Below are positions 43,452 to 57,510 of a stretch of 64,000 nt of DNA, piece by piece. The DNA is from Variovorax sp. OV700. Its GTDB lineage: Bacteria; Pseudomonadota; Gammaproteobacteria; Burkholderiales; Burkholderiaceae_C. The stretch lies in assembly GCF_900099805.1 (NCBI RefSeq), contig NZ_FNDR01000005.1, positions 62,001-126,000 on the forward strand. The letters are read 5' to 3'. Made by a program: the position numbers and the translations under genes. A model generated the notes under the pieces. The model saw only the letters and a program-made list of their open reading frames with translations, was not told where the DNA came from and made no database searches. Each line of letters opens with the position of its first letter. Within the stretch, counting starts at the first letter, position 1.

Positions 43452-45173
43452 TTAGTCCGAGCCCGGCCGCCACACCCGCGCCAGCGCGGCCAGCTTGCCC
43501 TTGAAGCTCAGCCGGTCGTTCGACAGCGCATCGATGAAGTCCGACAGGCGCTGCGACTTCACCATGGTGTAGATGGTGAGCCAGGTGGTGAAGACGAAGA
43601 CCACGCCAAACCAGAGCACCTTGCGCCATAGCGGCGCGTCGGCTTCGGCCAGCAGGTTCATGCCGAGGAAGCCCGTCGTCACGGTGCCGATCAGGCCGAA
43701 CAGCGTGACCACCGTGAGCCGCACCACGGTGCTGGCCTGCCGGCGCAGGCTGTCTGCATCCAGGTAGGTGTTCATGTCGGCGATGCGCGCCTTGACCTCG
43801 TCGTAGAGCGGGTCGAGCCCGAGGTGCGCGGTGCACATGTGGGACAGCGCGCGCACCTGCGCCTGCTCCGAGATCTCGTGGAACCAGTAGCGGTGCGTGA
43901 AGCGCAGAAAGCGTTCGAAGCTCGCGCGAATGGCGCGCTTGAACTGCTTCACGCTCGGCGTGCTGCGGATGTCGAGCCGCTTGAGGGCCTCCACCAGCTG
44001 GTCGGAGAACATCAGGAGCGAGGCCTTCTGGAAGTGCGCGATGAGGAACAGCAGGAAGTGTTGGTGCCTGAACTGCGCGAGCACGCCGCGGTCGCGGCAG
44101 CAGAAGAATTCGGAGCGCGCATCACCCACCACGATCAGTGCGTGGCCGTTGCACAGGTAGCGCGTGTTGGGCGCCGCGCCCGCATCGACCCAGAAGCGGT
44201 CGTAGCAATAGCGCTTCTCGAAATCGGCCAGATGCTGGTCGGCATAGGGCAGGTGCGCCTGCTGCGCCGCATCGGCCTCGGCGGCGCCAGTGACCAGCCC
44301 GAGCCGAATGAAGTCGTTGCGCGAGAGGCGCTTGGGGTCGTCGAGCGAAAGGTAGGCCATTACCGGCATGCGGTAGTACTCGATCTGCCGGAAGCGCAGC
44401 ACGCCAGGGTCGTCGGAATGGTCGCTCACCAGCGGCTGCATCAGATAGGCCCAGTGGGCCGAGATGCGTGGCGCGCGGTGCTGAGCCACGTGCGAAAGAA
44501 AAGCTTCGCGCTGCTGAGCATCCGAACGCGCGAGCACGCTGCCATCGGCAGCCAGCCATTCGACGCTGGCCATGCAATGCAGCGCGCCGCCCTCGGCGTT
44601 CCAGCCGGCCGGATACGCGCGGCCGAACCGGTAGAGCAGGTCTTGCGCCTGCGCGAGGCTCAGGTGGTCCGCGCCGACCTCGAGGTTGAGCATCACCACG
44701 TCGATGTCGAAGAAGAAATACAGGTCGCAATGCACCACGTCGAGCGTGATGGGCGCATCGCCGGGCTGCGCCACCACGCGCACCGCCGCAATGTCGTGGC
44801 GGCGGAAGACGCGCATCGGCGAATCGCCGCCGTGGCCGTCTTCATCGCCGCTCTTGCTCTTCGAGCGGCCCTCGCCGTAGAGAAAGCGCTGCACATACGG
44901 CAGGAAGCTCACGAACTCGTTGTAGTGCCGTTCATGAAAGCGACTGCTGTCGCCGGTGTATTCATCGATCTCTTCACGCCATGGCGAGGCATCGCCCATC
45001 TCGCGCAGCACATGCCAGGGACCGTGGTGCGAGGGCTTGTCGTCCGGAGCCGGCATCAGCCGCAGGGGCCAGAGCAGGGCCTGCCTGAAATGCTGCACGG
45101 CAGGCGCCGCGGAAGCGCCAGCCAGGGATGCGCCTGCCTCTGCGCGAACGGGAGCCTCGGATGTATTCAGCAT
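43452..45173 (-). CDS. CorA-like membrane protein with large N-terminal domain
   Basis: 573 residues from the ATG at 45173, with a GTG immediately before it. The C-terminal 85 residues have two transmembrane segments (about 500-520 and 533-553) joined by a short loop, with GMN in TTGFLGMNLL at the end of the first, the signature of CorA/ZntB-type channels. The preceding helical region (about 410-490) could be the stalk helix. The first 400 residues are longer than in typical CorA and contain many aromatic and charged residues with no recognised domain. It may be a divalent-cation transporter with an added cytoplasmic sensing domain. Confidence 0.8.
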   Translation of the reverse strand: MLNTSEAPVRAEAGASLAGASAAPAVQHFRQALLWPLRLMPAPDDKPSHHGPWHVLREMGDASPWREEIDEYTGDSSRFHERHYNEFVSFLPYVQRFLYGEGRSKSKSGDEDGHGGDSPMRVFRRHDIAAVRVVAQPGDAPITLDVVHCDLYFFFDIDVVMLNLEVGADHLSLAQAQDLLYRFGRAYPAGWNAEGGALHCMASVEWLAADGSVLARSDAQQREAFLSHVAQHRAPRISAHWAYLMQPLVSDHSDDPGVLRFRQIEYYRMPVMAYLSLDDPKRLSRNDFIRLGLVTGAAEADAAQQAHLPYADQHLADFEKRYCYDRFWVDAGAAPNTRYLCNGHALIVVGDARSEFFCCRDRGVLAQFRHQHFLLFLIAHFQKASLLMFSDQLVEALKRLDIRSTPSVKQFKRAIRASFERFLRFTHRYWFHEISEQAQVRALSHMCTAHLGLDPLYDEVKARIADMNTYLDADSLRRQASTVVRLTVVTLFGLIGTVTTGFLGMNLLAEADAPLWRKVLWFGVVFVFTTWLTIYTMVKSQRLSDFIDALSNDRLSFKGKLAALARVWRPGSD

Positions 45174-45210
45174 CACATGAGTGTAGGCAGAAGGGCTGTC
45201 AAAAGGCTGA

Positions 45211-45228
45211 CCTAGGGCAATCCCTAGG
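45211..45228. promoter_or_regulatory. 18-bp palindrome upstream of the ABC-kgu operon
   Basis: CCTAGGGCAATCCCTAGG: perfect 7-bp arms around CAAT. It lies just upstream of the -35 position, so a protein bound here could activate the operon or affect the divergent CorA-like gene. The cognate regulator is not identified. Confidence 0.6.
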
Positions 45229-45234
45229 TAGGCC

Positions 45235-45254
45235 TGAAACCGGTTTCATATAAG
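45235..45254 (+). promoter_or_regulatory. PtxS operator and -10 of the ABC-kgu operon
   Basis: TGAAACCGGTTTCA (45235-45248) is identical to the PtxS operator palindrome described for Pseudomonas ptxS/kgu promoters, and the gene at 51117 encodes a PtxS-like LacI repressor. It abuts TATAAG (45249-45254), the likely -10, so bound repressor would block RNA polymerase. At 17 bp spacing the -35 region is AGGTAG, a poor match. The predicted leader is about 48 nt. Confidence 0.8.
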
Positions 45255-45308
45255 CTGCAAGCCTTGCTTTCAAGGCATGCGCGCGGCCACGCCGTGCTTG
45301 CCGCACCC

Positions 45309-45980
45309 ATGAACTACCAGTTTCAATTCGAAGCCGTCTTCGCTGCCTGGCCGCTGTTGCTCAAGGGCACCTGGATCACGATCCAGCTCTCCCTGGTGGC
45401 CACCCTGCTGGGCCTGGTGGTCGCCATCTTCTGTGCCTGGGGCAAGACTTCGGGGCCAGGCTGGCTGCGCTTTGTCGTCAATGCGTACATCGAGGTGATC
45501 CGCAACACGCCGTTCCTGGTGCAGCTGTTTTTCTTCTTCTTTGCACTGCCGGCCATCGGGCTGCGCTGGTCGCCGCAAACGGCGGCGCTGGTGGCCATGG
45601 TGGTGAACCTGGGTGCGTATGCGACCGAGATCATCCGCGCGGGCATCGAATCGATTCCCAAGGGGCAGATCGAGGCGGGCAGGGCGCTCAACCTGAAGCC
45701 TTGGGAGATCTTCCGCTTCGTGATCATCAAGCCCGCGCTCAAGGCCATCTACCCGGCACTCACGAGCCAGTTCATCCTGCTGATGCTGAGCTCGGCCGTG
45801 GTGTCGGTCATCTCGGCCGACGACCTGACTTCGGTGGCCGCCAACCTGCAGTCGCAGACCTTCCGCAGCTTCGAGATCTACATCGTGGTGGCCGCCATCT
45901 ACCTGGCATTGGCGCTGGCGTTTTCGGCGCTGTTCAAGCTCATATACAAGCGCACGCTCAACTATCCGGACCGCCGGTAA
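45309..45980 (+). CDS. ABC transporter permease, polar amino acid (HisMQ) family
   Basis: 223 residues from the ATG at 45309. Four to five transmembrane segments; the EAA coupling loop is seen in IESIPKGQIEAGRALNLKPWEIFRFVIIKPALKAI (about 115-150). NTPFLVQLFFFFF is the typical N-terminal half-signature of the family. It forms a heterodimer with the next gene's product. The family usually serves glutamate, aspartate or basic amino acids, but here it is the first gene of a PtxS-controlled kgu-like operon, so a sugar acid is a reasonable alternative substrate. No Shine-Dalgarno sequence is clear. Confidence 0.92.
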   Translation: MNYQFQFEAVFAAWPLLLKGTWITIQLSLVATLLGLVVAIFCAWGKTSGPGWLRFVVNAYIEVIRNTPFLVQLFFFFFALPAIGLRWSPQTAALVAMVVNLGAYATEIIRAGIESIPKGQIEAGRALNLKPWEIFRFVIIKPALKAIYPALTSQFILLMLSSAVVSVISADDLTSVAANLQSQTFRSFEIYIVVAAIYLALALAFSALFKLIYKRTLNYPDRR

Positions 45981-46007
45981 CAGGCCACGCACGGAACACA
46001 AAAAATC

Positions 46008-46661
46008 ATGCGTACCTTCGGCTTTCCCGAATTTCTCTTCATCCTCGAAGCGGCCAAGTGGACGCTGGCGCTGTCTGCCATTGCCTTCATTGGCGGCGCG
46101 ATCCTGGGGCTGGCCGTCGCGCTCATGCGCACCTCCGATTCGACCTGGGCACGCACCGTGTCGACGGTGTTCATCCAGGTCTTCCAGGGCACGCCGCTGT
46201 TGCTGCAGCTGTTCCTGATCTTCTTCGGCGCGCCGGTGCTCGGGCTCGACATCAACCCGTGGATTGCCGCGGGCGTGGCGCTGGTCTTCAACAGCGCGGC
46301 CTTCCTGGGCGAGATCTGGCGCGGCTGCATCCAGGCCATTCCGCGCGGCCAGTGGGAGGCCGCCGAGGCGCTGAGCCTCAAGTACAGCGCGCGCATGCGC
46401 GACGTGGTGCTGCCGCAGGCCTTCAAGATCGCGCTCGCGCCCACGGTGGGCTACCTGGTGCAGATCATCAAGGGCACATCGCTCGCGGCCATCATCGGCT
46501 TTGCGGAGATCACCCGCGCGGGCCAGATCATCAACAACGCCACCTTCCAGCCGCTGATCGTGTTCTCGGTGGTGGCCGCCATCTACTTCGCGATCTGCTG
46601 GCCGCTGTCGCTGCTTGCTGCCCGCATGGAGCGCAGGCGCGCGCAGGCCCTGGCCCGCTGA
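46008..46661 (+). CDS. ABC transporter permease, polar amino acid (HisMQ) family
   Basis: 217 residues, 27 bp after the first permease. About five transmembrane segments, QGTPLLLQLFLIFFG signature (about 60), and the EAA loop in IQAIPRGQWEAAEALSLKYSARMRDVVLPQAF (about 108-140). It should pair with the first permease, together with the ATPase encoded at 47541. Confidence 0.92.
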   Translation: MRTFGFPEFLFILEAAKWTLALSAIAFIGGAILGLAVALMRTSDSTWARTVSTVFIQVFQGTPLLLQLFLIFFGAPVLGLDINPWIAAGVALVFNSAAFLGEIWRGCIQAIPRGQWEAAEALSLKYSARMRDVVLPQAFKIALAPTVGYLVQIIKGTSLAAIIGFAEITRAGQIINNATFQPLIVFSVVAAIYFAICWPLSLLAARMERRRAQALAR

Positions 46662-46707
46662 TTCCCTTTTCTCGTCGCTTCCTTTCTTTTTCCGGAGACA
46701 CATCCCC

Positions 46708-47505
46708 ATGACCCGTACCACCACCCGCCGCGTTGCGCTGGCAGCCCTCGGCCTTGGCGCCGCGCTCACCGTGTTCGCCCCCTTTGCCTCGGCACAGTCC
46801 GTCGCCGACATCAAGAAGAAGGGCGAGATCACCATCGGCATGCTGGTCGATTTTCCGCCCTACGGCACCACCAATGCGCAGAACCAGCCCGACGGCTATG
46901 ACGCCGACGTCGCCAAGCTGCTGGCCAAGGACTGGGGCGTCAAGGCCAACATCGTGCCGGTGACCGGCCCGAACCGCATTCCCTTCCTGCTGACCAACAA
47001 GGTCGACGTGCTGGTCGCCTCGCTGGCCATCACGCCCGAGCGCGCCAAGCAGGTGCAGTTCTCGCAGCCCTACGCGGCCGCGACCATCGTGCTGTATGGC
47101 GCCACCAAGACGCCCATCAAAGCGGCGGGCGACCTGAAGGGCCTGCGCGTGGGCGTGGCCCGCGCCTCGACGCAAGACGTGGCCGTGACCAAGGCCGCGC
47201 CGGAAGGCACCGAGATCCGCCGCTTCGACGACGACGCCTCGGCCATGCAGGCGCTGATCTCCGGCCAGGTAGATGCCATCGGCTGCTCGGTGACGGTGGC
47301 GGCGCAAATCGCCAAGCGCGTGCCCGCCGGCACCTATGAAAACAAGTTCACGCTGGTGCAGCAATCGATGGGCATCGCGATGCGTCCGGGCCAGGAAGAG
47401 TTGCACAAGGCAGTCAACGAGTTCGTCGCCAGGAACACCGCCAACGGCGAGCTGAACAAGCTCTACCAGAAGTGGCTGCAGGCCGACTTGCCCAAGATGC
47501 AGTAA
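46708..47505 (+). CDS. ABC transporter periplasmic substrate-binding protein, SBP family 3
   Basis: 265 residues with an N-terminal signal (ATG at 46708, CCGGAGA Shine-Dalgarno sequence upstream; cleavage near ASA-QS). It is not a lipoprotein. The mature protein shows the family 3 pattern: GEITIGMLVDFPPYG, GYDADVAKLLAKDWGVK, ITPERAKQVQFSQPY and a C-terminal LNKLYQKWL. The ligand-binding Asp for the amino group and the Arg for the carboxylate would need structural modelling. Family members bind amino acids; the operon context suggests 2-ketogluconate or another aldonic or keto acid. Confidence 0.92.
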   Translation: MTRTTTRRVALAALGLGAALTVFAPFASAQSVADIKKKGEITIGMLVDFPPYGTTNAQNQPDGYDADVAKLLAKDWGVKANIVPVTGPNRIPFLLTNKVDVLVASLAITPERAKQVQFSQPYAAATIVLYGATKTPIKAAGDLKGLRVGVARASTQDVAVTKAAPEGTEIRRFDDDASAMQALISGQVDAIGCSVTVAAQIAKRVPAGTYENKFTLVQQSMGIAMRPGQEELHKAVNEFVARNTANGELNKLYQKWLQADLPKMQ

Positions 47506-47540
47506 GCCGCCAAGGCTGAAGAAAAACGAGGAATCCTGGC

Positions 47541-48296
47541 ATGACGACGGAATCGATCATCCGCATGGAAGCGGTCAACAAGTGGTACGGTGAATTCCAG
47601 GTGTTGACCGGCATCGACCTGTCGGTGCGCCAGGGCGAGCGCATCGTGATCTGCGGGCCTTCGGGTTCGGGCAAGTCCACGCTCATCCGCTGCATCAACC
47701 GGCTCGAGACGGTGCAGAAGGGCCGCATCGTGGTCGATGGCATCGACCTCACGGCCGGCGGCAAGAACGTGGACGCGGTGCGCGCCGAGGTCGGCATGGT
47801 GTTCCAGCAGTTCAACCTGTTCCCGCACCTCACCATCCTGGAAAATTGCACGCTCGCGCCAATGCGCTCGCGCGGCATGACCAAGGCTCAGGCCGAAGAG
47901 GTGGCCATGAAGTACCTCGCGCGCGTGCGCATTCCCGAGCAGGCCCACAAGTACCCGAGCCAGCTCTCGGGCGGCCAGCAACAGCGCGTGGCGATTGCGC
48001 GCGCGCTGTGCATGACGCCCAAGATCATGCTGTTCGACGAGCCCACCTCGGCGCTCGACCCCGAGATGGTCAAGGAAGTGCTCGACACCATGATCGGCCT
48101 GGCCGAAGACGGCATGACCATGCTGTGCGTGACGCACGAAATGGGCTTTGCCCGCAGCGTGGCCGACCGGGTGATCTTCATGGCCGACGGAAAGATCGTC
48201 GAGCAGGCGGCGCCCGCCGAGTTCTTCGGCAATCCAAAGGACGAAAGGACACGACAATTCCTCGGCCAGATCCTCAGCTCCCACCAAGCACACTGA
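47541..48296 (+). CDS. ABC transporter ATP-binding protein
   Basis: 251 residues, GAGGAA Shine-Dalgarno sequence upstream. Walker [10 protein letters not shown] (about 39), Q-loop in VFQQFNLFP (about 91), signature [15 protein letters not shown] (about 144), Walker [15 protein letters not shown] (about 164) and the switch His in VTHEMGFA (about 200). It is the polar amino acid ATPase type (GlnQ/HisP-like). Its TGA directly abuts the ATG of the kguE-like gene, so the transporter and metabolic genes are one transcript. Confidence 0.95.
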
Positions 48297-49040
48297 ATGT
48301 CCTTTTCCGTTCTGATTTCCCTGTCGTCCTTCGGCGCGGCCGAGGTGGGGCGGCACGGCCAGCTCTGGTGCGCGCAGCTGGCATTGGCAGCGGGCGCCGT
48401 TTCCGTTGAAGTGCGTGGCGAGATGCTGCGTGATGCGGATGCGGAACTGCCCGCGCTGAAGGGTCTCGCCTCCGTGTACTCCAGCCCCGAAGGCCTCTGG
48501 GCCGAAGGCGGCTGGCTCGACAGCGCCGCGCTCAAGCGCGGCATCGCCGCAGCGACGCGCGTCGGCGCCAAGCGGCTCAAGATGTCCATCGGCGATTTCC
48601 AGCCTTCTTCGCACGGCTCGCTCTGGGGCCTGAAGGTGGAACTGTCGCAAACCCGCGTCGAGCTGCTAATCGAGAACGACCAGACCGTGCGCGCCGGCAC
48701 GCTGCCCGCGCTGCAGGCTTTCTTCGATGCGGCCGATCGGGCCGGCGTCGAGCTGGGCATGACCTTCGACATGGGCAACTGGCACTGGGTCGGCGAGTGC
48801 CCCTTGCAGGCCGCAGAGGTGCTGGGCCGCCGCGTGCGCTACGTGCATTGCAAGGGCGCGCAGCGCCTGCCGCACAAGTGGGTGGCGGTGCCGCTGGGCG
48901 ACTCCGCCGCGCCATGGCGCGCCGTATTGCGCGCGCTGCCGGCCGACGTGCCGCACGCCATCGAATACCCGCTGGCGGGTGACGACCTGCTGGCTGCCAC
49001 GCGCACGCAAATCGACTTCATCCGCGCCGCACGGGCGTAA
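48297..49040 (+). CDS. kguE: Sugar phosphate isomerase/epimerase (KguE-like)
   Basis: 247 residues, ATG immediately after the ATPase stop. It is an AP-endonuclease-2-like TIM barrel: SISLSSFGA-like strand at the start, VEVRGEML (about 38), LLIENDQT (about 122), MTFDMGNWHW (about 156) and YVHCKG (about 181), where Glu, Asp and His would bind a divalent metal. In Pseudomonas the kgu operon begins with such a protein, whose biochemical step is not firmly known. The name rests mainly on gene order with kguK, kguD and ptxS. Confidence 0.75.
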   Translation: MSFSVLISLSSFGAAEVGRHGQLWCAQLALAAGAVSVEVRGEMLRDADAELPALKGLASVYSSPEGLWAEGGWLDSAALKRGIAAATRVGAKRLKMSIGDFQPSSHGSLWGLKVELSQTRVELLIENDQTVRAGTLPALQAFFDAADRAGVELGMTFDMGNWHWVGECPLQAAEVLGRRVRYVHCKGAQRLPHKWVAVPLGDSAAPWRAVLRALPADVPHAIEYPLAGDDLLAATRTQIDFIRAARA

Positions 49041-49052
49041 GCAGAACCACAC

Positions 49053-50006
49053 ATGACAGAACCCACCGCTTTCGACGTTGCCCTGTTCGGCGAAGCCATG
49101 CTGCTGCTGGTGGCCGACCGGCCCGGTCCGCTGGAAAACGCAGAGGCGTTCCACAAGCGCACGGCCGGTGCCGAGACCAACGTGGCCATCGGCCTTGCGC
49201 GCCTGGGCCTCAAGGTGGGCTGGGCCAGCCGGCTCGGCACCGACTCGATGGGGCGCTATCTGATCGCCGCGATGAAGGCCGAGGGCATCGACTGCTCGCA
49301 CGTCATTTGCGATCCGTCGCAGCGCACGGGTTTCCAGTTCAAAGGCCGCGTCACCGATGGCAGCGACCCGCCCGTCGAATACCACCGCAAGGGTTCGGCC
49401 GCCAGCCAGATGGGCCCGGCCGACGTCGATGAAGCCTGGCTGCGTTCGGCGCGCCACCTGCATGCCACGGGCGTGTTCCCGGCCATCTCCGACAGCAGCC
49501 TGCAGGCCGCGCTCAAGAGCATGGACGTGATGCGCGCGGCCGGCCGCACGATCTCGTTCGACACCAACCTGCGGCCCACGCTGTGGTCTTCGACCGAGAC
49601 CATGCGCCACTGGGTCAACGAGCTGGCCTCGCGTGCCGACTGGGTGCTGCCCGGCATCGAGGAGGGCTTGCTGCTCACGGGCCACACCAAACCTGAAGAC
49701 GTGGCGCGCTTCTACCGTGAGCGCGGTGCGAAGCTGGTGGTCGTCAAGCTTGGTGCCGAAGGCGCCTATTACGACAGCGACGTGGCCGGTACCGGCCGCG
49801 TCGATGGCTTTCCGGTGAAGGAAGTGATCGACACCGTGGGGGCGGGCGACGGCTTCGCGGCCGGCGTGGTGAGCGCATTGCTCGAAGGCAGGAGCGTGCC
49901 CGAGGCCGTGCGCCGCGGCGCCTGGATCGGCGCGCGCGCCGTGCAGGTTCTGGGCGACACTGAAGGCTTGCCCACCCGCGCACAACTCGAAGAAGCAGGA
50001 TTCTGA
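49053..50006 (+). CDS. kguK: PfkB-family sugar kinase (2-ketogluconokinase-like)
   Basis: 317 residues. PfkB signatures: GAETNVAIGLARLG (about 39), the GTDSMGR turn (about 63), and DTVGAGDGFAAG with the catalytic Asp (about 258). The KDG-kinase-like segment FDTNLRPTLW (about 170) typically accompanies 2-keto sugar acid substrates. In the kgu pathway KguK phosphorylates 2-ketogluconate to 2-keto-6-phosphogluconate. 2-keto-3-deoxygluconate is an alternative substrate from sequence alone. It begins 12 bp after kguE and ends 2 bp before the dehydrogenase ATG. Confidence 0.8.
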   Translation: MTEPTAFDVALFGEAMLLLVADRPGPLENAEAFHKRTAGAETNVAIGLARLGLKVGWASRLGTDSMGRYLIAAMKAEGIDCSHVICDPSQRTGFQFKGRVTDGSDPPVEYHRKGSAASQMGPADVDEAWLRSARHLHATGVFPAISDSSLQAALKSMDVMRAAGRTISFDTNLRPTLWSSTETMRHWVNELASRADWVLPGIEEGLLLTGHTKPEDVARFYRERGAKLVVVKLGAEGAYYDSDVAGTGRVDGFPVKEVIDTVGAGDGFAAGVVSALLEGRSVPEAVRRGAWIGARAVQVLGDTEGLPTRAQLEEAGF

Positions 50007-50008
50007 CC

Positions 50009-50992
50009 ATGACGACGAAAAAGAACGTGCTTGTCTTTCGCCCGTTGCCCGAAGACCAGCTGGCGCGCCTTCAGGCCGCGCACCATGTGACCGTGGCCGA
50101 TCCGCGCAAGGAGCCGGAAGCTTTTGCGGCCGCGCTGCGCACCGCGAACGGGCTCATCGGCGCGAGCCACACGGTCGATGCGGCGCTGCTCGACGCGGCG
50201 CCCGCGCTCGAGGTGATTTCGAGCATATCGGTCGGCGTCGACAACTACGCGCTGGCGGAACTGCATAAGCGCGGCGTCGTGCTGTGCCACACGCCCGACG
50301 TGCTGACCGAAACGGTGGCCGACACGGTGTTCGCGATCCTGATGGCCACGCAGCGCCGCGTGGTCGAGCTTTCGAACCTCGTGCGCGAAGGCCGGTGGAC
50401 GAAGAACATCGGCGACGAACTCTTCGGCACCGACGTGCATGGCAAGACGCTGGGCATTCTCGGCTTCGGGCGCATCGGCCAGGCCGTGGCGCGCCGCGGC
50501 GCGCTGGGCTTCGGCATGCCGGTGCTCTATCACTCGCGCCGGCCGGTCGACCTGGCCACGCAGGCGCCCGAGCTGCAGGACCGCGCCACGCATACGCCCC
50601 TGGACGAACTGCTCGCGCGTTCGGACATCGTGCTGGCGATGCTGCCGTTGACCGACGCGACGCGCGGCATGATCGACGCCGCCTTCTTCGCGCGTATGAA
50701 GCCCGGAGCGGCCTTCATCAACGGCGGCCGCGGTGCCACGGTGAACGAAGCCGCCTTGCTCCACGCACTTGATCACGGCACGCTGCGCGCGGCGGGCCTG
50801 GACGTGTTCGCGAAGGAGCCGCTGCCGGCCGATTCGCCCTTGCGCACCCATCCGCGCGTGACGCCGCTGCCGCACATCGGATCGGCCACGCACGAGACGC
50901 GGCATGCCATGGCGGAACTGGCAACCACCAACCTGCTGCAGGTATTGGCCGGCGAGAAGCCGACGGCGCCGTACGACACGGCGACTGCATGA
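50009..50992 (+). CDS. kguD: D-2-hydroxyacid dehydrogenase (KguD-like 2-keto-6-phosphogluconate reductase)
   Basis: 327 residues. The Rossmann motif LGILGFGRIGQAVARR (about 148) and the catalytic Arg (GGRGATVNEAALL, about 237), Glu and His (LPHIGSATHETR, about 287) define the D-2-hydroxyacid dehydrogenase family, GhrB/glyoxylate reductase-like. In the kgu pathway KguD reduces 2-keto-6-phosphogluconate to 6-phosphogluconate, which enters the Entner-Doudoroff route. A general hydroxypyruvate or gluconate reductase activity is the alternative. It follows kguK by 2 bp. Confidence 0.82.
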   Translation: MTTKKNVLVFRPLPEDQLARLQAAHHVTVADPRKEPEAFAAALRTANGLIGASHTVDAALLDAAPALEVISSISVGVDNYALAELHKRGVVLCHTPDVLTETVADTVFAILMATQRRVVELSNLVREGRWTKNIGDELFGTDVHGKTLGILGFGRIGQAVARRGALGFGMPVLYHSRRPVDLATQAPELQDRATHTPLDELLARSDIVLAMLPLTDATRGMIDAAFFARMKPGAAFINGGRGATVNEAALLHALDHGTLRAAGLDVFAKEPLPADSPLRTHPRVTPLPHIGSATHETRHAMAELATTNLLQVLAGEKPTAPYDTATA

Positions 50993-51008
50993 ACCCGCAG
51001 AGGATTTT

Positions 51009-51109
51009 CTCCCTCCCCTTCCGGGGGAGGGCAGGGGTGGGGGCAAGCGGCGTATCCATCGGACGCTCTGCCTGCCCCCATCCCAGCCTTCCCCCGGAGG
51101 GGGAAGGAG
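51009..51109. repeat. Long imperfect inverted repeat containing the ptxS Shine-Dalgarno sequence
   Basis: Arms at about 51009-51044 and 51074-51109 are imperfect complements of each other, and each is itself palindromic (for the right arm, CCTTCCCCC-GGA-GGGGGAAGG, 51087-51107). It resembles an intergenic repetitive element. The right arm supplies GGAAGGAG, 7 bp before the ptxS ATG, so the ribosome site can be folded into a hairpin. Confidence 0.7.
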
Positions 51110-51116
51110 CAGATCC

Positions 51117-52142
51117 ATGAACCCGGCGGGCCGCGCCACCATCGCCGACGTCGCCGAGGCGGCGGGCGTTTCCAAGGCCACTGTCTCGCGCTTTCTCAAC
51201 CACCGCGACCGGCTCCTGAGCCGCGACATCGCGGCGCGCGTGGAGGCGGCCATCGCCAAGCTGGCCTACACGCCCAGCCCGATGGCGCAGGCGCTGAGCC
51301 ATGGACGCTCGCGGCTCATCGGTCTGATCGTGGCGGACATCACCAACCCCTATTCGGTGGCGGTGCTGCGCGGCGCCGAGAAGGCCTGCCAGGAAGCGGG
51401 TTACCTCGTGATGCTGTTCAACCTGGGCAACGAGAGCGAACGCGAGCGCGAGGCCATCAATGCGCTCGCGGGCTACCAGGTCGACGGCTTCATCCTCAAC
51501 ACGCTGGGCCGCGGCAGCAACGTGGTCGACGCGGTCACGCTGCACGGCAAGCCAGCGGTGCTGGTCGACCGTCGCCACGCCGGCATGCACACCGACTTCG
51601 TGGCGCTCGACAACCATTCGGCCATGCGCGACACCTGCGGCCACCTGGTCGAAGGTGGCTTTCGCGAACTGCTCTACGTGACCGAGCCGCAGAAGGGCGT
51701 GAGTTCGCGGCGCGAACGCACGGCCGCCTTCGGTGCCTGCGTGGCCGCGCACGAGCCGCGGGTGGCGGGCGAGGTGTTCGAGAGCGTCGAAGACGACGGC
51801 GATGCGCTCGACGTAGCCTTGCGCTTGCTGCGGCAGCGCGCAAAAAGGGGGCGCCGGGCGGCGGTGGTCGCTGGCAACGCCGTGGTCACGCTGCGCATCG
51901 CGCAATCGATGGCGCGGCTGGGCTGGCAGTTTGGACAAGACCTGGGCTTCGTCGGCTTCGACGATCCCGAATGGGCCTCGCTGATCGGGCCCGGCCTGAG
52001 CACCGTGGCGCAGCCGACCGACGCCATTGGCCGCTCGGCGGCTACCTGCCTGATAGAACGGCTGCAGGGGCTGGATGCAGCGCCGCGGCAACTGCTGCTG
52101 CCGGGACAACTGGTGGTGCGGGGCTCGTCCCGGCCGGCATGA
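51117..52142 (+). CDS. ptxS: LacI-family transcriptional repressor, PtxS-like
   Basis: 341 residues from the ATG at 51117. N-terminal helix-turn-helix ATIADVAEAAGVSKATVSRFLN and the hinge helix SPMAQALSHGRSR (about 54-66) come first, then a periplasmic-binding-protein-like effector domain (IGLIVADITNPYSVAVLRG, about 68). PtxS represses kgu genes and responds to 2-ketogluconate in Pseudomonas. The exact PtxS operator upstream of 45309 supports the name. As the last gene of the operon it would be autoregulated. Its 3' end overlaps an HNH-like gene on the opposite strand by 101 bp. Confidence 0.85.
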   Translation: MNPAGRATIADVAEAAGVSKATVSRFLNHRDRLLSRDIAARVEAAIAKLAYTPSPMAQALSHGRSRLIGLIVADITNPYSVAVLRGAEKACQEAGYLVMLFNLGNESEREREAINALAGYQVDGFILNTLGRGSNVVDAVTLHGKPAVLVDRRHAGMHTDFVALDNHSAMRDTCGHLVEGGFRELLYVTEPQKGVSSRRERTAAFGACVAAHEPRVAGEVFESVEDDGDALDVALRLLRQRAKRGRRAAVVAGNAVVTLRIAQSMARLGWQFGQDLGFVGFDDPEWASLIGPGLSTVAQPTDAIGRSAATCLIERLQGLDAAPRQLLLPGQLVVRGSSRPA

Positions 52143-52422
52143 CGGGCTGATTCGCGGCGGAGGCGAGGCCCGCCTCGACGCGCTCGGCAATCCAGCGCTG
52201 GAAACCGCGTTCGGCCTGCAGCTTGAACTCGTTTCGGGTCTGGTTGCAGATCGCGTGGGCAAGCCGCCGGTGCTTCTGCTTGCGGACGCCGCCCAGTGTC
52301 GAATCGTTCAGGTGCTCGATGGTGGCCGACTCCGGCGCGCTGCGAGGTTCCGCAAAGTCCATCGGCAGCCCGCACCAGTGGCAGTTGTTGCCGAAGGACG
52401 AGCGCAGGGCCTGCACGCTCAT
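52042..52422 (-). CDS. HNH-like small zinc protein
   Basis: 126 residues from the ATG at 52422. CHWCGLPM (about 13-20), SATIEHLND (about 35) and HRRLAHAICNQTRN (about 53-66) have the CxxC-H-H-C pattern of treble-clef HNH nucleases of the type used in restriction, repair or phage packaging. The C-terminal 45 residues are a Pro/Ala-rich tail with no fold, and it is this tail that overlaps ptxS by 101 bp. It follows the RidA gene by 26 bp on the same strand. Whether it cuts DNA is unknown. Confidence 0.7.
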   Translation of the reverse strand: MSVQALRSSFGNNCHWCGLPMDFAEPRSAPESATIEHLNDSTLGGVRKQKHRRLAHAICNQTRNEFKLQAERGFQRWIAERVEAGLASAANQPVMPAGTSPAPPVVPAAAVAAALHPAPAAVLSGR

Positions 52423-53911: not shown

Positions 53912-54709
53912 CTACTTCGGCGCGCTGCCGAAATGCGCTGCGTAGATCTTGTCGTAGCTGCCGTCGGCCTTGATGTCGTCAAGGCCCTTGTCGATCCTGG
54001 CCAGCAGTTCGGCGTTGCCCTTCTTGACCGCGATGCCGTAGTGCTCGACCGGGAAGGACGCATCGCTCACCGTCTTGAAGCCGCCCTTGGTGTTGTTGGC
54101 GAGGTAGTGCACCACTACGCCGTTGTCGGCGACCACGGCCTCGACGCCGCCGGCTTCGAGTTCCTTGAGCGCCAGCGGCGTGGACTCGAAGCGCTTGATG
54201 TTGCCGCTCGACTTGCCCTGCAGCTTGCCCACCACCTCGTCGCCCGTGGTGCCGTTCTGCACGCCGACCTTCATGGCCTTGATGTCTTCGAACCGGGTTA
54301 CCGGTGCATCGGTGCGGACGGCGATCAACTGCTTCGCGTCGAAGTAGGGCTTCGAGAAGTCCATGGTCTGGCGGCGCTCGTCGGTGATGGTGATGGCCGA
54401 AACCAGCAGGTCGCGATCGCCCTGGCCGAGCGCGTTGAAGATGCCTTCCCACGGCGTGTTGACGAACTTCACCTCGATGCCGGCCTTGTTTGCGACGGCC
54501 TTCACCACGTCGACGTCGAAGCCGACGATGTCACCCTTGTCGTTCTGCGTCTCGAAGGGCGTGTAGGCCGCATCGGTGCCCACCACGTAGACGCGGGCAG
54601 CGGGTGCGGCCGTCGGTGTGGCTACGGGCGCCTGCTTGCCACAGCCAGCCAATGCAAGGCCGGCGAGAAGGGTGGCGGCAATCAGCGTGAAGCGGCGGTT
54701 GTCGAGCAT
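53912..54709 (-). CDS. Solute-binding lipoprotein, SBP family 3
   Basis: 265 residues from the ATG at 54709. A lipoprotein signal ends in LALAGC. The mature sequence VYVVGTDAAYTPFE, IVGFDVDVVKAVA, and FSKPYFDAKQLIAV is the basic-amino-acid binding protein pattern. There is no permease or ATPase gene nearby, so it either feeds a distant ABC transporter or serves as a receptor. It lies between the transglutaminase gene (15 bp) and the ATP-grasp gene (26 bp), on the same strand, and so is embedded in that cluster. Confidence 0.9.
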   Translation of the reverse strand: MLDNRRFTLIAATLLAGLALAGCGKQAPVATPTAAPAARVYVVGTDAAYTPFETQNDKGDIVGFDVDVVKAVANKAGIEVKFVNTPWEGIFNALGQGDRDLLVSAITITDERRQTMDFSKPYFDAKQLIAVRTDAPVTRFEDIKAMKVGVQNGTTGDEVVGKLQGKSSGNIKRFESTPLALKELEAGGVEAVVADNGVVVHYLANNTKGGFKTVSDASFPVEHYGIAVKKGNAELLARIDKGLDDIKADGSYDKIYAAHFGSAPK

Positions 54710-54735
54710 GGGCTGCCTCCTGGGAGAGAGCGTCA

Positions 54736-57510
54736 TCAGGCTCCGACGGAGCGCAGCGATTCGGAAGTGAGCGTGAAGTAGCGCGTGCCGATGGCGTCGG
54801 ACACATGGTAGGCCGCCGTCTCGCAATTGGCCAGAAGTTCGGCCAGCGCAGGGTAGTTCGCGTCGGCTCCGACCGCGCAGAGATGCTCGAGCGTCCAGGT
54901 GGCCGGATCGGGCAGTTCGTATGACAGCGCGGTGAGCTTGCCTGGCGCGCTGCCGGCCAGGCGCGCAATTCGACCGCGCAGCGTTTGCGTGACCCACGCG
55001 AGCGAGCGCGGGTTCTCGGCATCGAGCACCAGCAGGTCGACCAGCGTGGCCACGTCGCGCCGTTGCTGGTAGCGGGCGTGAAAGGTGATGGTGCTGTCGA
55101 ACAGCGCCACCATGGCTTCGAAGCCGCTCACTTCATGCACTGCGCCGTCCTCGAAACCGGCCTCGAGCGCGCTGGCAAGAAACCCAAGGCGCTCGATGTG
55201 GCGGCCGATCGACAGCAGGCGCCAGGCGTCGTCGCGTGTCATGCGGTCGGTCTGGGCGCCGGTCATGGCGGCGAGTGCGGTGCTGGCCGATTCGAGCGCG
55301 CGCAGCGCCGCGCCGGTGGCAAAGCTGCCTTCGCCGGCCTGCTCGGCCGTGCGCCGCAGAAACTCGGCTTCGGCGCGCATGATCTGGTTCCAGTTGTCCT
55401 GCGAGAGGCGCTCGCGCACGGCGGCTGCGGCCTGCCGGATGCAGAGCAGGCTGAAGCCCACGCTGCCGCCGCGCTCCACATCGCCGAGCTCGGCGACCAG
55501 CGCGCGTTCGAACACGCGGCGCGACTGCGGCGCACTGGGCACTCCGGCCGGCACCAGCGCATTGCGCAGCGCCATGCGATGCAGCCAGTCGAGCAGCGGG
55601 CGCGACGACTGGTCTTCGCTGCCCAGCAGGTTGAGCGTGAGGCGCGCGAGGCGCACTGCGTTTTCCGCGCGCTCAGTGTAGCGGCCGAGCCAGAACATGT
55701 TCTCGGCAGCGCGGCTGGTCACGGGCGCGCGGTGCCGCGCCAGCGAGGCCGGCGTGGCGTGCGGCTGCAGCAGCGTGGTGCGGTCGACCTCACCATGCGT
55801 CTGCACCCATACGTCGGCGCTGCTGCCGCCGCGCTGCATGGAGGCGATTTGCGCATCGCGGCCTGCGAGCCGTGCCAGCCCGCCGGGCAGCACCCGCCAC
55901 GACTGCGCGCCATCGCTCACCGCGAAGACGCGCAGCAGCACCGCGCGCGGCGCGATGTGGCCGGGGCCCAAGTCGTTGGCCCAGGTGGGCATTTGCGACA
56001 GCGGGAGATAGCTCTGGATCGTGTGGGCTTCGCCCTCGCGCACGATGCGGCCGGCCCATTCGTCCAGCTTGCGCCGGCTCAGCTGGCTGCCCAGCACCGC
56101 GTCGAAGCTGGTCTGCCCGTCGGAGCCGGGGTAGGTGGGCTTGATGGCGCAGTCGCCCAGCTGCGGCAGCACCGCCTCGAGCGCGGCCCGTTCGCCGCAC
56201 CACCAGGTCGGCAGCGCCGGCAGCTTGAGCTTTTCGCCGATGAGGCGGCGCGCGAGGCCGGGCAGGAAGCCCAGCAGCGCGGGCGATTCGAGGAACGCCG
56301 AGCCCGGCATGTTGGCCACCAGCACATTGCCCGCGCGGATGGCCTGCAGCAGGCCTGGAACGCCCAAGGTGGAATCAGGACGCAGTTCGAGCGGATCGAG
56401 AAACTGGTCGTCCAGCCGCTTGATGAGCCCGTGCACCGGCCGCAGCCCCTGCAGTGTCTTGAGATAGAGCCGCTGGTCGCGCACGGTCAGGTCGCTGCCC
56501 TCGACCAGCGTCACGCCCAGGTAGCGCGCGAGGTAGGCGTGCTCGAAGTAGGTCTCGTTGTAGGGGCCGGGCGTCAACAGTGCGATGTGCGGCGGCACGC
56601 CGGCCGGGCACATGTTCTGCAGGCCGTCCATCATGGCGCTGTAGGTGGCGGCCAGGCGCTGCACGTGCAGCGCCTCGAAGGCCTGCGGAAACTGGCGCGC
56701 AATGGCGAGCCGGTTCTCCAGCAGGTAGCCCAGCCCCGAGGGCGCCTGTGTGCGCTGCGAGACCACCCACCAGTTGCCGTCGGGCCCGCGGGCGAGGTCG
56801 AAGGCTGCGATGTGCAGCCATGTGTCGCCGGGCGGCTTCACGCCGTGCAGGGCGCGCAAATAGCCGGGATGGCCGCGCACCAGCGCCGCGGGCAGCAGGC
56901 CTTCGGCCAGCAGCTGCTGCGGGCCGTAGACGTCGGCCATGACGCGGTCGAGCACCCGCACGCGCTGCAGCACACCGGTTTCGATCTGGCTCCAGCTCTC
57001 GGGCGAGACGATCAGCGGAAACAGGTCGAGCGACCAGGGGCGCTGCGGCCCGTTGGCGTCGGCATAGACGTTGTAGGTGACGCCGTTGTCCCGGATTTGC
57101 CGCTCCAGGCTGACCGCGCGCCTTGGCAGGTCGCCGAAACCGCCCTGGCCGAGCTGGTCGAAGAAGGCGTTCCAGGCGGGCGTGAGAGGCGGCTTTTCGC
57201 TGGAAGGCTGTGGTTGCTGGGCAGCCGGAGCCGGCATCGGCGTTTGCGTCTGGCTCTGGCTCTGCGTCTGGAATTGGGCCTGCGTACCTGGGACCGCCGT
57301 CGGGCGCTCTGCCGCGGCGTCGTAGAGCAAAGGCGCCATCGGCGCCATGGGAGGCATGCCCACGGCAGGCCGCGTCGGTGCCGCGGGCGTGGCCTCGCCG
57401 CGCAGCTCGTCGAAGTGGCCGGGCAGGGCGGCCGGGGCGAGCGCCGACGCCAGGGCGGCTGGAAATTCCAGTGCCTGGGCGTCGAACAGGGATTCGTTCA
57501 AAGGTTCCAC
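54736..57510 (-). CDS. Circularly permuted ATP-grasp plus alpha-E domain protein
   Basis: 924 residues. A 115-residue low-complexity N-terminus (Ala/Pro-rich with FQTQSQSQTQTPMP) comes first. The circularly permuted ATP-grasp part (about 120-575) shows NVYADANGPQRPWSLDL, ETYFEHAYLARYLGV, VEGSDLTVRDQRLYLKT and KPTYPGSDGQTSFDAV. The alpha-E domain (about 600-915) is all-helical, with ENMFWLGRYTERAEN and RLLSIGRHIERLGFLA as landmarks. In the family, these two modules sit in one or two proteins next to transglutaminases and are predicted to add amino acids or peptides to a target. No product is known. Confidence 0.9.
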   Translation of the reverse strand: MEPLNESLFDAQALEFPAALASALAPAALPGHFDELRGEATPAAPTRPAVGMPPMAPMAPLLYDAAAERPTAVPGTQAQFQTQSQSQTQTPMPAPAAQQPQPSSEKPPLTPAWNAFFDQLGQGGFGDLPRRAVSLERQIRDNGVTYNVYADANGPQRPWSLDLFPLIVSPESWSQIETGVLQRVRVLDRVMADVYGPQQLLAEGLLPAALVRGHPGYLRALHGVKPPGDTWLHIAAFDLARGPDGNWWVVSQRTQAPSGLGYLLENRLAIARQFPQAFEALHVQRLAATYSAMMDGLQNMCPAGVPPHIALLTPGPYNETYFEHAYLARYLGVTLVEGSDLTVRDQRLYLKTLQGLRPVHGLIKRLDDQFLDPLELRPDSTLGVPGLLQAIRAGNVLVANMPGSAFLESPALLGFLPGLARRLIGEKLKLPALPTWWCGERAALEAVLPQLGDCAIKPTYPGSDGQTSFDAVLGSQLSRRKLDEWAGRIVREGEAHTIQSYLPLSQMPTWANDLGPGHIAPRAVLLRVFAVSDGAQSWRVLPGGLARLAGRDAQIASMQRGGSSADVWVQTHGEVDRTTLLQPHATPASLARHRAPVTSRAAENMFWLGRYTERAENAVRLARLTLNLLGSEDQSSRPLLDWLHRMALRNALVPAGVPSAPQSRRVFERALVAELGDVERGGSVGFSLLCIRQAAAAVRERLSQDNWNQIMRAEAEFLRRTAEQAGEGSFATGAALRALESASTALAAMTGAQTDRMTRDDAWRLLSIGRHIERLGFLASALEAGFEDGAVHEVSGFEAMVALFDSTITFHARYQQRRDVATLVDLLVLDAENPRSLAWVTQTLRGRIARLAGSAPGKLTALSYELPDPATWTLEHLCAVGADANYPALAELLANCETAAYHVSDAIGTRYFTLTSESLRSVGA

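What the first reader, a model, noticed from the sequence alone, without database searches (positions are those of the whole stretch)
45211..52142. A 2-ketogluconate (kgu/ptxS) operon that uses an amino-acid-type ABC transporter in place of KguT
Genes resembling kguE, kguK, kguD and ptxS are contiguous with two HisMQ-type permeases, a family 3 binding protein and a GlnQ-type ATPase. The ATPase stop abuts the kguE ATG, so transport and metabolism share one message. In the Pseudomonas kgu operon the transporter is the MFS protein KguT. The ABC family normally carries amino acids, so a sugar-acid substrate would be an unexpected specificity and a new way to take up 2-ketogluconate. Seen: gene order, motifs and operator. 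Known: kgu pathway and PtxS site. Inferred: substrate.
Basis: partly seen in the sequence, partly recalled or inferred. Interest (0 to 1): 0.85.

Follow-up and report, generated by a model that had tools for sequence, protein, structure and literature searches.

The report
Amino-acid-type importer repurposed for sugar acid
In soil bacteria of the Variovorax group, the genes for eating the sugar acid 2-ketogluconate come with an import pump of a family known for carrying amino acids, and the pump's binding pocket appears to have lost parts that hold an amino acid, so it probably carries the sugar acid instead.

Summary
Window 45235-52142 carries a 2-ketogluconate (2KG) operon: an exact PtxS palindrome, the genome's only site within one mismatch, then two HisMQ-type permeases, a family 3 binding protein (SBP), a GlnQ-type ATPase, kguE, kguK, kguD and a PtxS-like repressor. 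No KguT ortholog was found in the genome.

The pairing is conserved. A full ABC cassette lies beside kguE in 40 of 46 kguE-positive genomes of a 399-genome family sample and in 71 of the 80 best named loci; of the other 15, 8 are cut by contig ends and 7 lack it. None has KguT (over 40% identity) nearby. All seven close SBP orthologs in 399 genomes of the order adjoin kguK.

The pocket has changed. Of four polar residues holding amino-acid ligands in AncQR, the main clade keeps only the carboxylate arginine; the amino-group aspartate is serine or proline in 115 of 115 aligned SBPs.

Five Variovorax type strains with the operon use 2KG (published API tests), but so does one strain lacking the ABC, and no negative strain was available.

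Best reading: an ABC importer for 2KG. The substrate is inferred, not measured.

The parts
45235..45248 (.). PtxS operator, exact palindrome TGAAACCGGTTTCA
   Evidence: 0 mismatches; only site with 0-1 mismatch in the genome; same 14-mer reported as the Pseudomonas PtxS site (PMC3402500 and PMC11678583, passages)
45309..45980 (+). ABC permease 1 (HisMQ/GlnP type)
   Evidence: PF00528 1.5e-23 and TIGR01726 2.8e-29
46008..46661 (+). ABC permease 2 (HisMQ/GlnP type)
   Evidence: PF00528 4.6e-18 and TIGR01726 2.2e-29
46708..47505 (+). Family 3 periplasmic binding protein; proposed 2-ketogluconate receptor
   Evidence: PF00497 1.4e-37; model best matches AncCDT-1, T. maritima ArgBP and other amino-acid receptors; pocket changes
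47541..48296 (+). ABC ATPase, GlnQ-like
   Evidence: PF00005 1.7e-39; NF007027 GlnQ 325.9 bits, below its 379-bit cut-off
48297..49040 (+). kguE, putative epimerase; exact role unknown
   Evidence: 1yx1 (PA2260) E 2.4e-40
49053..50006 (+). kguK, 2-ketogluconate kinase (PfkB family)
   Evidence: PF00294 2.2e-57; 58% identical to KguK of a KguT-type operon
50009..50992 (+). [quoted passage not shown]
   Evidence: PF02826 5.1e-57; 49-54% identical to KguD of KguT-type operons
51117..52142 (+). ptxS-like LacI repressor
   Evidence: PF00356 and Peripla_BP_3; 43% identical to the LacI regulator of the Enterobacter kgu operon

Best explanation
This is a PtxS-controlled 2-ketogluconate operon whose importer is an ABC transporter of the polar-amino-acid type. 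PtxS sits on the palindrome at 45235-45248 and blocks the message until 2KG binds it (reported for Pseudomonas PtxS, inferred here). The binding protein catches 2KG in the periplasm: its conserved arginine (R112) holds the carboxylate, while the residues that hold an amino acid's amino group and side chain have been replaced. The permease pair and the ATPase drive uptake. KguK phosphorylates 2KG, KguD reduces the product to 6-phosphogluconate, and the Entner-Doudoroff route takes over. Shown here by sequence: gene identity, operator, conserved linkage, no KguT found, pocket changes. Inferred: substrate, co-transcription and mechanism.
For: Operon genes and exact operator. Full ABC cassette beside kguE in 39 of 45 fetched family loci plus the window (40 of 46; one of the 39, L075, is a diverged SBP-first cassette), and in 71 of the 80 best named loci, all 71 with an exact operator in the stretch. 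The two samples share some strains. No KguT over 40% identity near any of those 125 loci. KguT orthologs (76-77%) occur in 3 of 22 genomes searched, the three with KguT-type kgu operons. All 7 SBP orthologs at E below 1e-100 in 399 order genomes adjoin kguK, including two loci with ptxS, operator, kguK and kguD but no kguE. Pocket: R112 and A107 in 115 of 115 aligned SBPs; position 194 is S in 112, P in 3, D in none. By alignment to AncQR these columns are R83, T78 and D167, and E17 becomes L46 in the main clade (contacts from PMC5431781, passages). In a GlnH-based sensor D157, which bonds the alpha-amino group, mutated to N raised Kd from 85 nM to 130 uM (PMC3375291, passages). Twelve of 24 other SBPs examined in this genome keep both T78 and D167. 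A sister SBP in G178 lies next to a galactarate/altronate dehydratase gene. Five type strains with the operon use 2KG (PMC12396923, passages); one, J22P168, has no KguT-like protein at E 1e-20.
Against: No binding, uptake or mutant data. All eight type strains of PMC12396923 use 2KG, so the phenotype has no negative case. Variovorax J22R193 has only kguE and kguK at its locus, no ABC, kguD or ptxS there and no operator within one mismatch in the genome, yet is scored positive for 2KG. Two Variovorax loci (L118, L147) keep the operator directly before kguE but lack the ABC; their genomes show no KguT at E 1e-60 and no close SBP. Four genomes of one genus carry kguEKD without the ABC and have a TRAP-type DctP gene downstream. 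Pocket residues were assigned by sequence alignment, not from a liganded structure, and the model's mean pLDDT is 80.7. Seven of the 24 other SBPs lack D or E at the D167 column too, so its loss is not unique to kgu SBPs.
Confidence: 0.85

Rival explanations
1. The ABC is a broader sugar-acid importer (for example gluconate, 2,5-diketogluconate, 5-ketogluconate and 2KG), with 2KG only one of several substrates. This overlaps with the best explanation rather than excluding it.
For: A sister SBP (45% identical) sits beside a galactarate/altronate dehydratase, an FAH-family gene and an SMP-30 lactonase gene, so the subfamily may handle several sugar acids.
Against: A PtxS-type operator and linkage to 2KG enzymes. 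5-ketogluconate use does not follow the operon: 3 of the 5 typed strains that carry it use 5KG, all 5 use 2KG.
Confidence: 0.3
2. The ABC carries an amino acid or amino sugar acid and is only a neighbour of the kgu genes.
For: Most of the listed structural relatives are amino-acid receptors, and the closest curated models are for amino acids or ectoine.
Against: Conserved linkage in 111 loci of two overlapping samples (40 and 71) and across families, no KguT found beside it, operator upstream of the ABC, and no aspartate at the amino-group column in 115 of 115.
Confidence: 0.06
3. 2KG enters Variovorax mainly by another unidentified carrier, and the ABC is a minor or back-up system.
For: J22R193 uses 2KG without the ABC; weak MFS relatives of KguT (27-32%) exist in 5 of the 6 typed genomes searched.
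Against: J22P168 uses 2KG, carries the ABC operon and has no such MFS relative at E 1e-20.
Confidence: 0.12

Closest known systems
Pseudomonas kgu operon (kguE-kguK-kguT-kguD with ptxS)
   Same: Same enzyme families, same repressor family, same 14-bp operator
   Different: Transporter is the MFS protein KguT; here it is a four-gene binding-protein-dependent ABC importer
Polar amino acid ABC importers (HisJQMP, GlnHPQ, ArgBP type)
   Same: Same fold, permease and ATPase families; carboxylate arginine kept
   Different: Three of four polar amino-acid contact residues replaced in the SBP; linked to sugar-acid genes
Ectoine/hydroxyectoine importer EhuABCD
   Same: A branch of the same family with a non-standard substrate; its ATPase and permease models are among the closest NCBIfam models
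   Different: The SBP scores only 56 bits against EhuB, whose cut-off is 190.9
AncCDT-1 / cyclohexadienyl dehydratase line
   Same: Closest PDB fold match; a lineage that also left amino-acid binding (PMC7683729, passages)
   Different: That line became an enzyme; here a transporter setting is kept

Membership tests
2-ketogluconate utilisation (kgu) operon | kguE, kguK and kguD orthologs contiguous | tested here: met
2-ketogluconate utilisation (kgu) operon | PtxS-like LacI regulator and 14-bp palindrome upstream of the first gene | tested here: met
2-ketogluconate utilisation (kgu) operon | MFS transporter KguT in the operon | tested here: not met
   none in the operon; none at E 1e-60 in the genome
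2-ketogluconate utilisation (kgu) operon | Co-transcription and induction by 2KG | not testable with these tools
   only spacing and operator position seen
Polar amino acid ABC importer (PAAT) family | SBP_bac_3 receptor, HEQRo-type permeases, GlnQ-type ATPase | tested here: met
Polar amino acid ABC importer (PAAT) family | Residues binding alpha-carboxylate and alpha-amino group of an amino acid | tested here: not met
   carboxylate Arg kept; Thr78, Asp167 and Glu17 equivalents replaced. Membership by sequence and fold stands; the amino-acid function is what is doubted
Polar amino acid ABC importer (PAAT) family | Measured amino acid transport | not testable with these tools
   no assay

The most novel reading that the evidence does not exclude
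A whole subfamily of amino-acid-type ABC importers in Burkholderiales has given up amino-group recognition and taken on sugar acids and perhaps ureides or other organic acids. It would have been recruited to kgu operons possibly twice (main clade, and the SBP-first cassette in two genomes), taking KguT's place.
Probability: 0.5. Interest if true: 0.62.

Novelty: new variant of a known kind. Interest (0 to 1): 0.52.

Why it matters
It would be the first ABC importer assigned to 2-ketogluconate, as far as the listings of my searches of an open-access library show. It would correct the family label 'amino acid ABC transporter' for these genes in Variovorax, Acidovorax and relatives. It gives a ready test of how an amino-acid receptor changes its substrate: a few pocket positions separate it from known amino-acid binders. 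It also suggests that some of these bacteria scavenge 2KG made by neighbours: the gluconate dehydrogenase small subunit (PF13618) was found over its cut-off in 5 of 14 genomes with the ABC, 3 of 3 with KguT and 0 of 3 Variovorax genomes with kguE but neither, and not in the window's own genome. That is a weak hint, since other routes to 2KG exist.

Tried and rejected
Chance neighbour: rejected, because linkage holds across many genomes. A KguT elsewhere in the genome: searched, none at E 1e-60. Close SBPs outside the order: a class sample of 369 genomes gave only the window's own genome at E 1e-70 (the tool scored at most 7 candidates a genome), so this form may be confined to the order. Promoter and terminator scan of 45000-52400 gave 0 and 2 sites, not above shuffles. 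Gluconate dehydrogenase as a marker of home-made 2KG: mixed. Regulon papers were searched for PtxS, kgu or ketogluconate: no occurrence in PMC4052901 or, for PtxS and ketogluconate, in PMC5343134; their supplements were not seen. PMC7074706 (passages) tabulates Rhodoferax strains that differ in 2KG use; not followed, as I could not tie them to genomes here. Tree of 37 SBPs (six distant paralogs dropped before building): the 11 main kgu SBPs form one clade (100/99), the two SBP-first kgu SBPs group with a non-kgu one (100/100), all inside an 18-row group (100/100) apart from the arginine/glutamine and glutamate types. In the pocket table one own-genome SBP locus (L235) gave no usable ORF and was left out, and distant paralogs are alignment-dependent.
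Full report
What is there. The window lies in an unnamed 6.48 Mb genome. Its kgu genes are closest to those of Variovorax (KguE 96% identical to V. paradoxus DS1452), so I take it to be Variovorax. On the + strand, eight genes follow an exact PtxS palindrome at 45235-45248: two permeases, a binding protein, an ATPase, kguE, kguK, kguD and a LacI-type regulator. The 124-bp gap before ptxS holds an inverted repeat with 56-nt arms.

Are the enzymes Kgu enzymes? KguE's one PDB sequence match at E 0.001 is PA2260 (1yx1), E 2.4e-40; that PA2260 is kguE of P. aeruginosa is recalled. The window's KguK and KguD are 53-58% and 49-54% identical to the proteins of KguT-type kgu operons on two Enterobacterales plasmids and in three genomes of the order; KguE is 34-38%. 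No NCBIfam model passes its cut-off for the window's KguE, KguK or KguD. The same is true of KguE and KguK from the Enterobacter operon, where only the reductase passes one, GhrB (E 1e-30 or better).

Regulation. The 14-bp palindrome is the sequence reported to be bound by Pseudomonas PtxS, which 2KG releases (PMC3402500 and PMC11678583, passages). In the window's genome it is the only site with at most one mismatch.

Conservation. In a sample of 399 genomes of the order, 9 have KguE: 4 with this ABC form (window included), 1 with a diverged SBP-first ABC, 3 with KguT and 1 with neither in the stretch fetched. In 399 genomes of the family, 46 have KguE. I fetched 45 of these loci (the window is the 46th): 39 have all four ABC genes, 2 are cut by contig ends and 4, all of one genus, lack the ABC (two of those four genomes are 6-8% contaminated). 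One of the 39 (L075) is a diverged SBP-first cassette (44-53% identical). Of the 39, 28 have an exact operator in the stretch, and the other 11 each have two or more one-mismatch copies. Among the 80 best named loci (of 284 found, so close relatives only), 71 have the full ABC and all 71 an exact operator, 6 are cut by contig ends, and 3 (L118, L143, L147) lack the ABC. The samples overlap in strains. No locus of either set has KguT over 40% identity nearby; one cut locus, L111, has a 26% MFS relative.

The reverse test. SBP orthologs at E below 1e-100 in the order sample number 7, and all 7 adjoin kguK (the tool scored at most 6 candidates a genome). Two of them (G267, G207) have ptxS, operator, kguK and kguD but no kguE found, and in one (G294) kguK alone was recognised. 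A class sample of 369 genomes gave no close SBP outside the window's own genome at E 1e-70.

KguT. In 22 kgu-positive genomes searched, 4 have a match at E 1e-60. Three are the genomes with KguT-type operons (76-77%), one of which has a second, 34% relative; the fourth, G178, has a 32% relative. The window's genome has none.

The pocket. The SBP model (27-sequence alignment, mean pLDDT 80.7, pTM 0.75) best matches AncCDT-1, T. maritima ArgBP and other amino-acid receptors, AncQR among them. In AncQR the ligand is held by E17, T78, R83 and D167, with F20 and F58 as hydrophobic neighbours; D167 contacts the alpha-amino group (PMC5431781, passages). In 115 aligned kgu SBPs (window plus 114 loci, overlapping strains), R112 and A107 are invariant, and position 194 is S in 112 and P in 3. 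The alignment places these at R83, T78 and D167, and gives L46 for E17 and G87 for F58 in the main clade. So only the carboxylate contact survives. R152 is invariant and R90 is present in all 114 rows with a residue there; they may serve an acidic or hydroxylated ligand, which is inference. R90 is also common in the glutamate-type paralogs. Of 24 other SBPs of this genome, 12 keep both T78 and D167, and 17 have D or E at the D167 column.

Sister SBPs. The SBP belongs to an 18-row group (100/100) distinct from arginine/glutamine and glutamate types. One member in G178 lies beside genes for a galactarate/altronate dehydratase, an FAH-family protein and an SMP-30 lactonase. Others do not point to sugar acids: G132 lies beside a ureidoglycolate lyase gene, G317 near CoA-transferase and carboxymuconolactone-decarboxylase-family genes, and G158 beside a GntR regulator. 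The group may serve organic acids other than amino acids in general. The two SBP-first kgu cassettes group with the non-kgu G317, which fits a second recruitment but does not prove it.

Phenotype. PMC12396923 (passages and outline) reports API ID 32 GN tests: all eight Variovorax type strains use 2KG. Five of them are among my loci with the full operon: J2P1-59, J22R24, J22R187, J22P271 and J22P168. J22P168 has no KguT-like protein at E 1e-20, and the other four have only 27-32% relatives. Against this, J22R193 has kguE and kguK alone at its locus and still uses 2KG. Two further type strains (J2L1-78, J22R133) were not among my loci. With no negative strain, these data show only that the pathway goes with the operon in five cases.

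Loci without the ABC. In L118 and L147 the operator stands shortly before kguE, the genomes lack KguT at E 1e-60 and no close SBP is present (best 33%). In four genomes of one genus a shikimate-dehydrogenase-like gene and a TRAP-type DctP gene follow kguD. The transporter slot therefore seems to change hands between MFS, ABC and perhaps TRAP types, which fits a role in 2KG uptake for whatever fills it.

Verdict. The operon and the replacement of KguT are shown by sequence. It is a new variant of a known kind. My searches listed no paper whose title or abstract start describes an ABC importer for 2KG, but the library is open-access only and I saw only listings for most papers.

Noticed in passing
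window 51002-51116: An inverted repeat with 56-nt arms (79% complementary, 3 nt between) fills most of the kguD-ptxS gap; it may be a REP-type element or a hairpin affecting ptxS expression.
   Followed up: partly
window 53912-54997, minus strand: A second family 3 SBP that keeps T78 and the amino-group aspartate, probably an ordinary amino-acid receptor and a useful control for the kgu SBP.
   Followed up: partly
L251:4333-10735: An ABC ATPase and a sister SBP (45% identical) next to galactarate/altronate dehydratase, FAH-family and SMP-30 genes: a probable sugar-acid importer in another genus.
   Followed up: partly
L091:10065-12007 (also L095, L096, L097): A shikimate-dehydrogenase-like gene and a TRAP DctP gene follow kguD where the ABC is missing; no DctQM-sized ORF was seen right after it in L091.
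   Followed up: partly
L118 and L147: Variovorax loci with the exact PtxS operator shortly before kguE, no ABC, and no KguT at E 1e-60 in the genome; their 2KG carrier is unknown.
   Followed up: partly
L270:475-2953: A further sister SBP beside a ureidoglycolate lyase gene, hinting at ureide transport in the same SBP group.
   Followed up: partly
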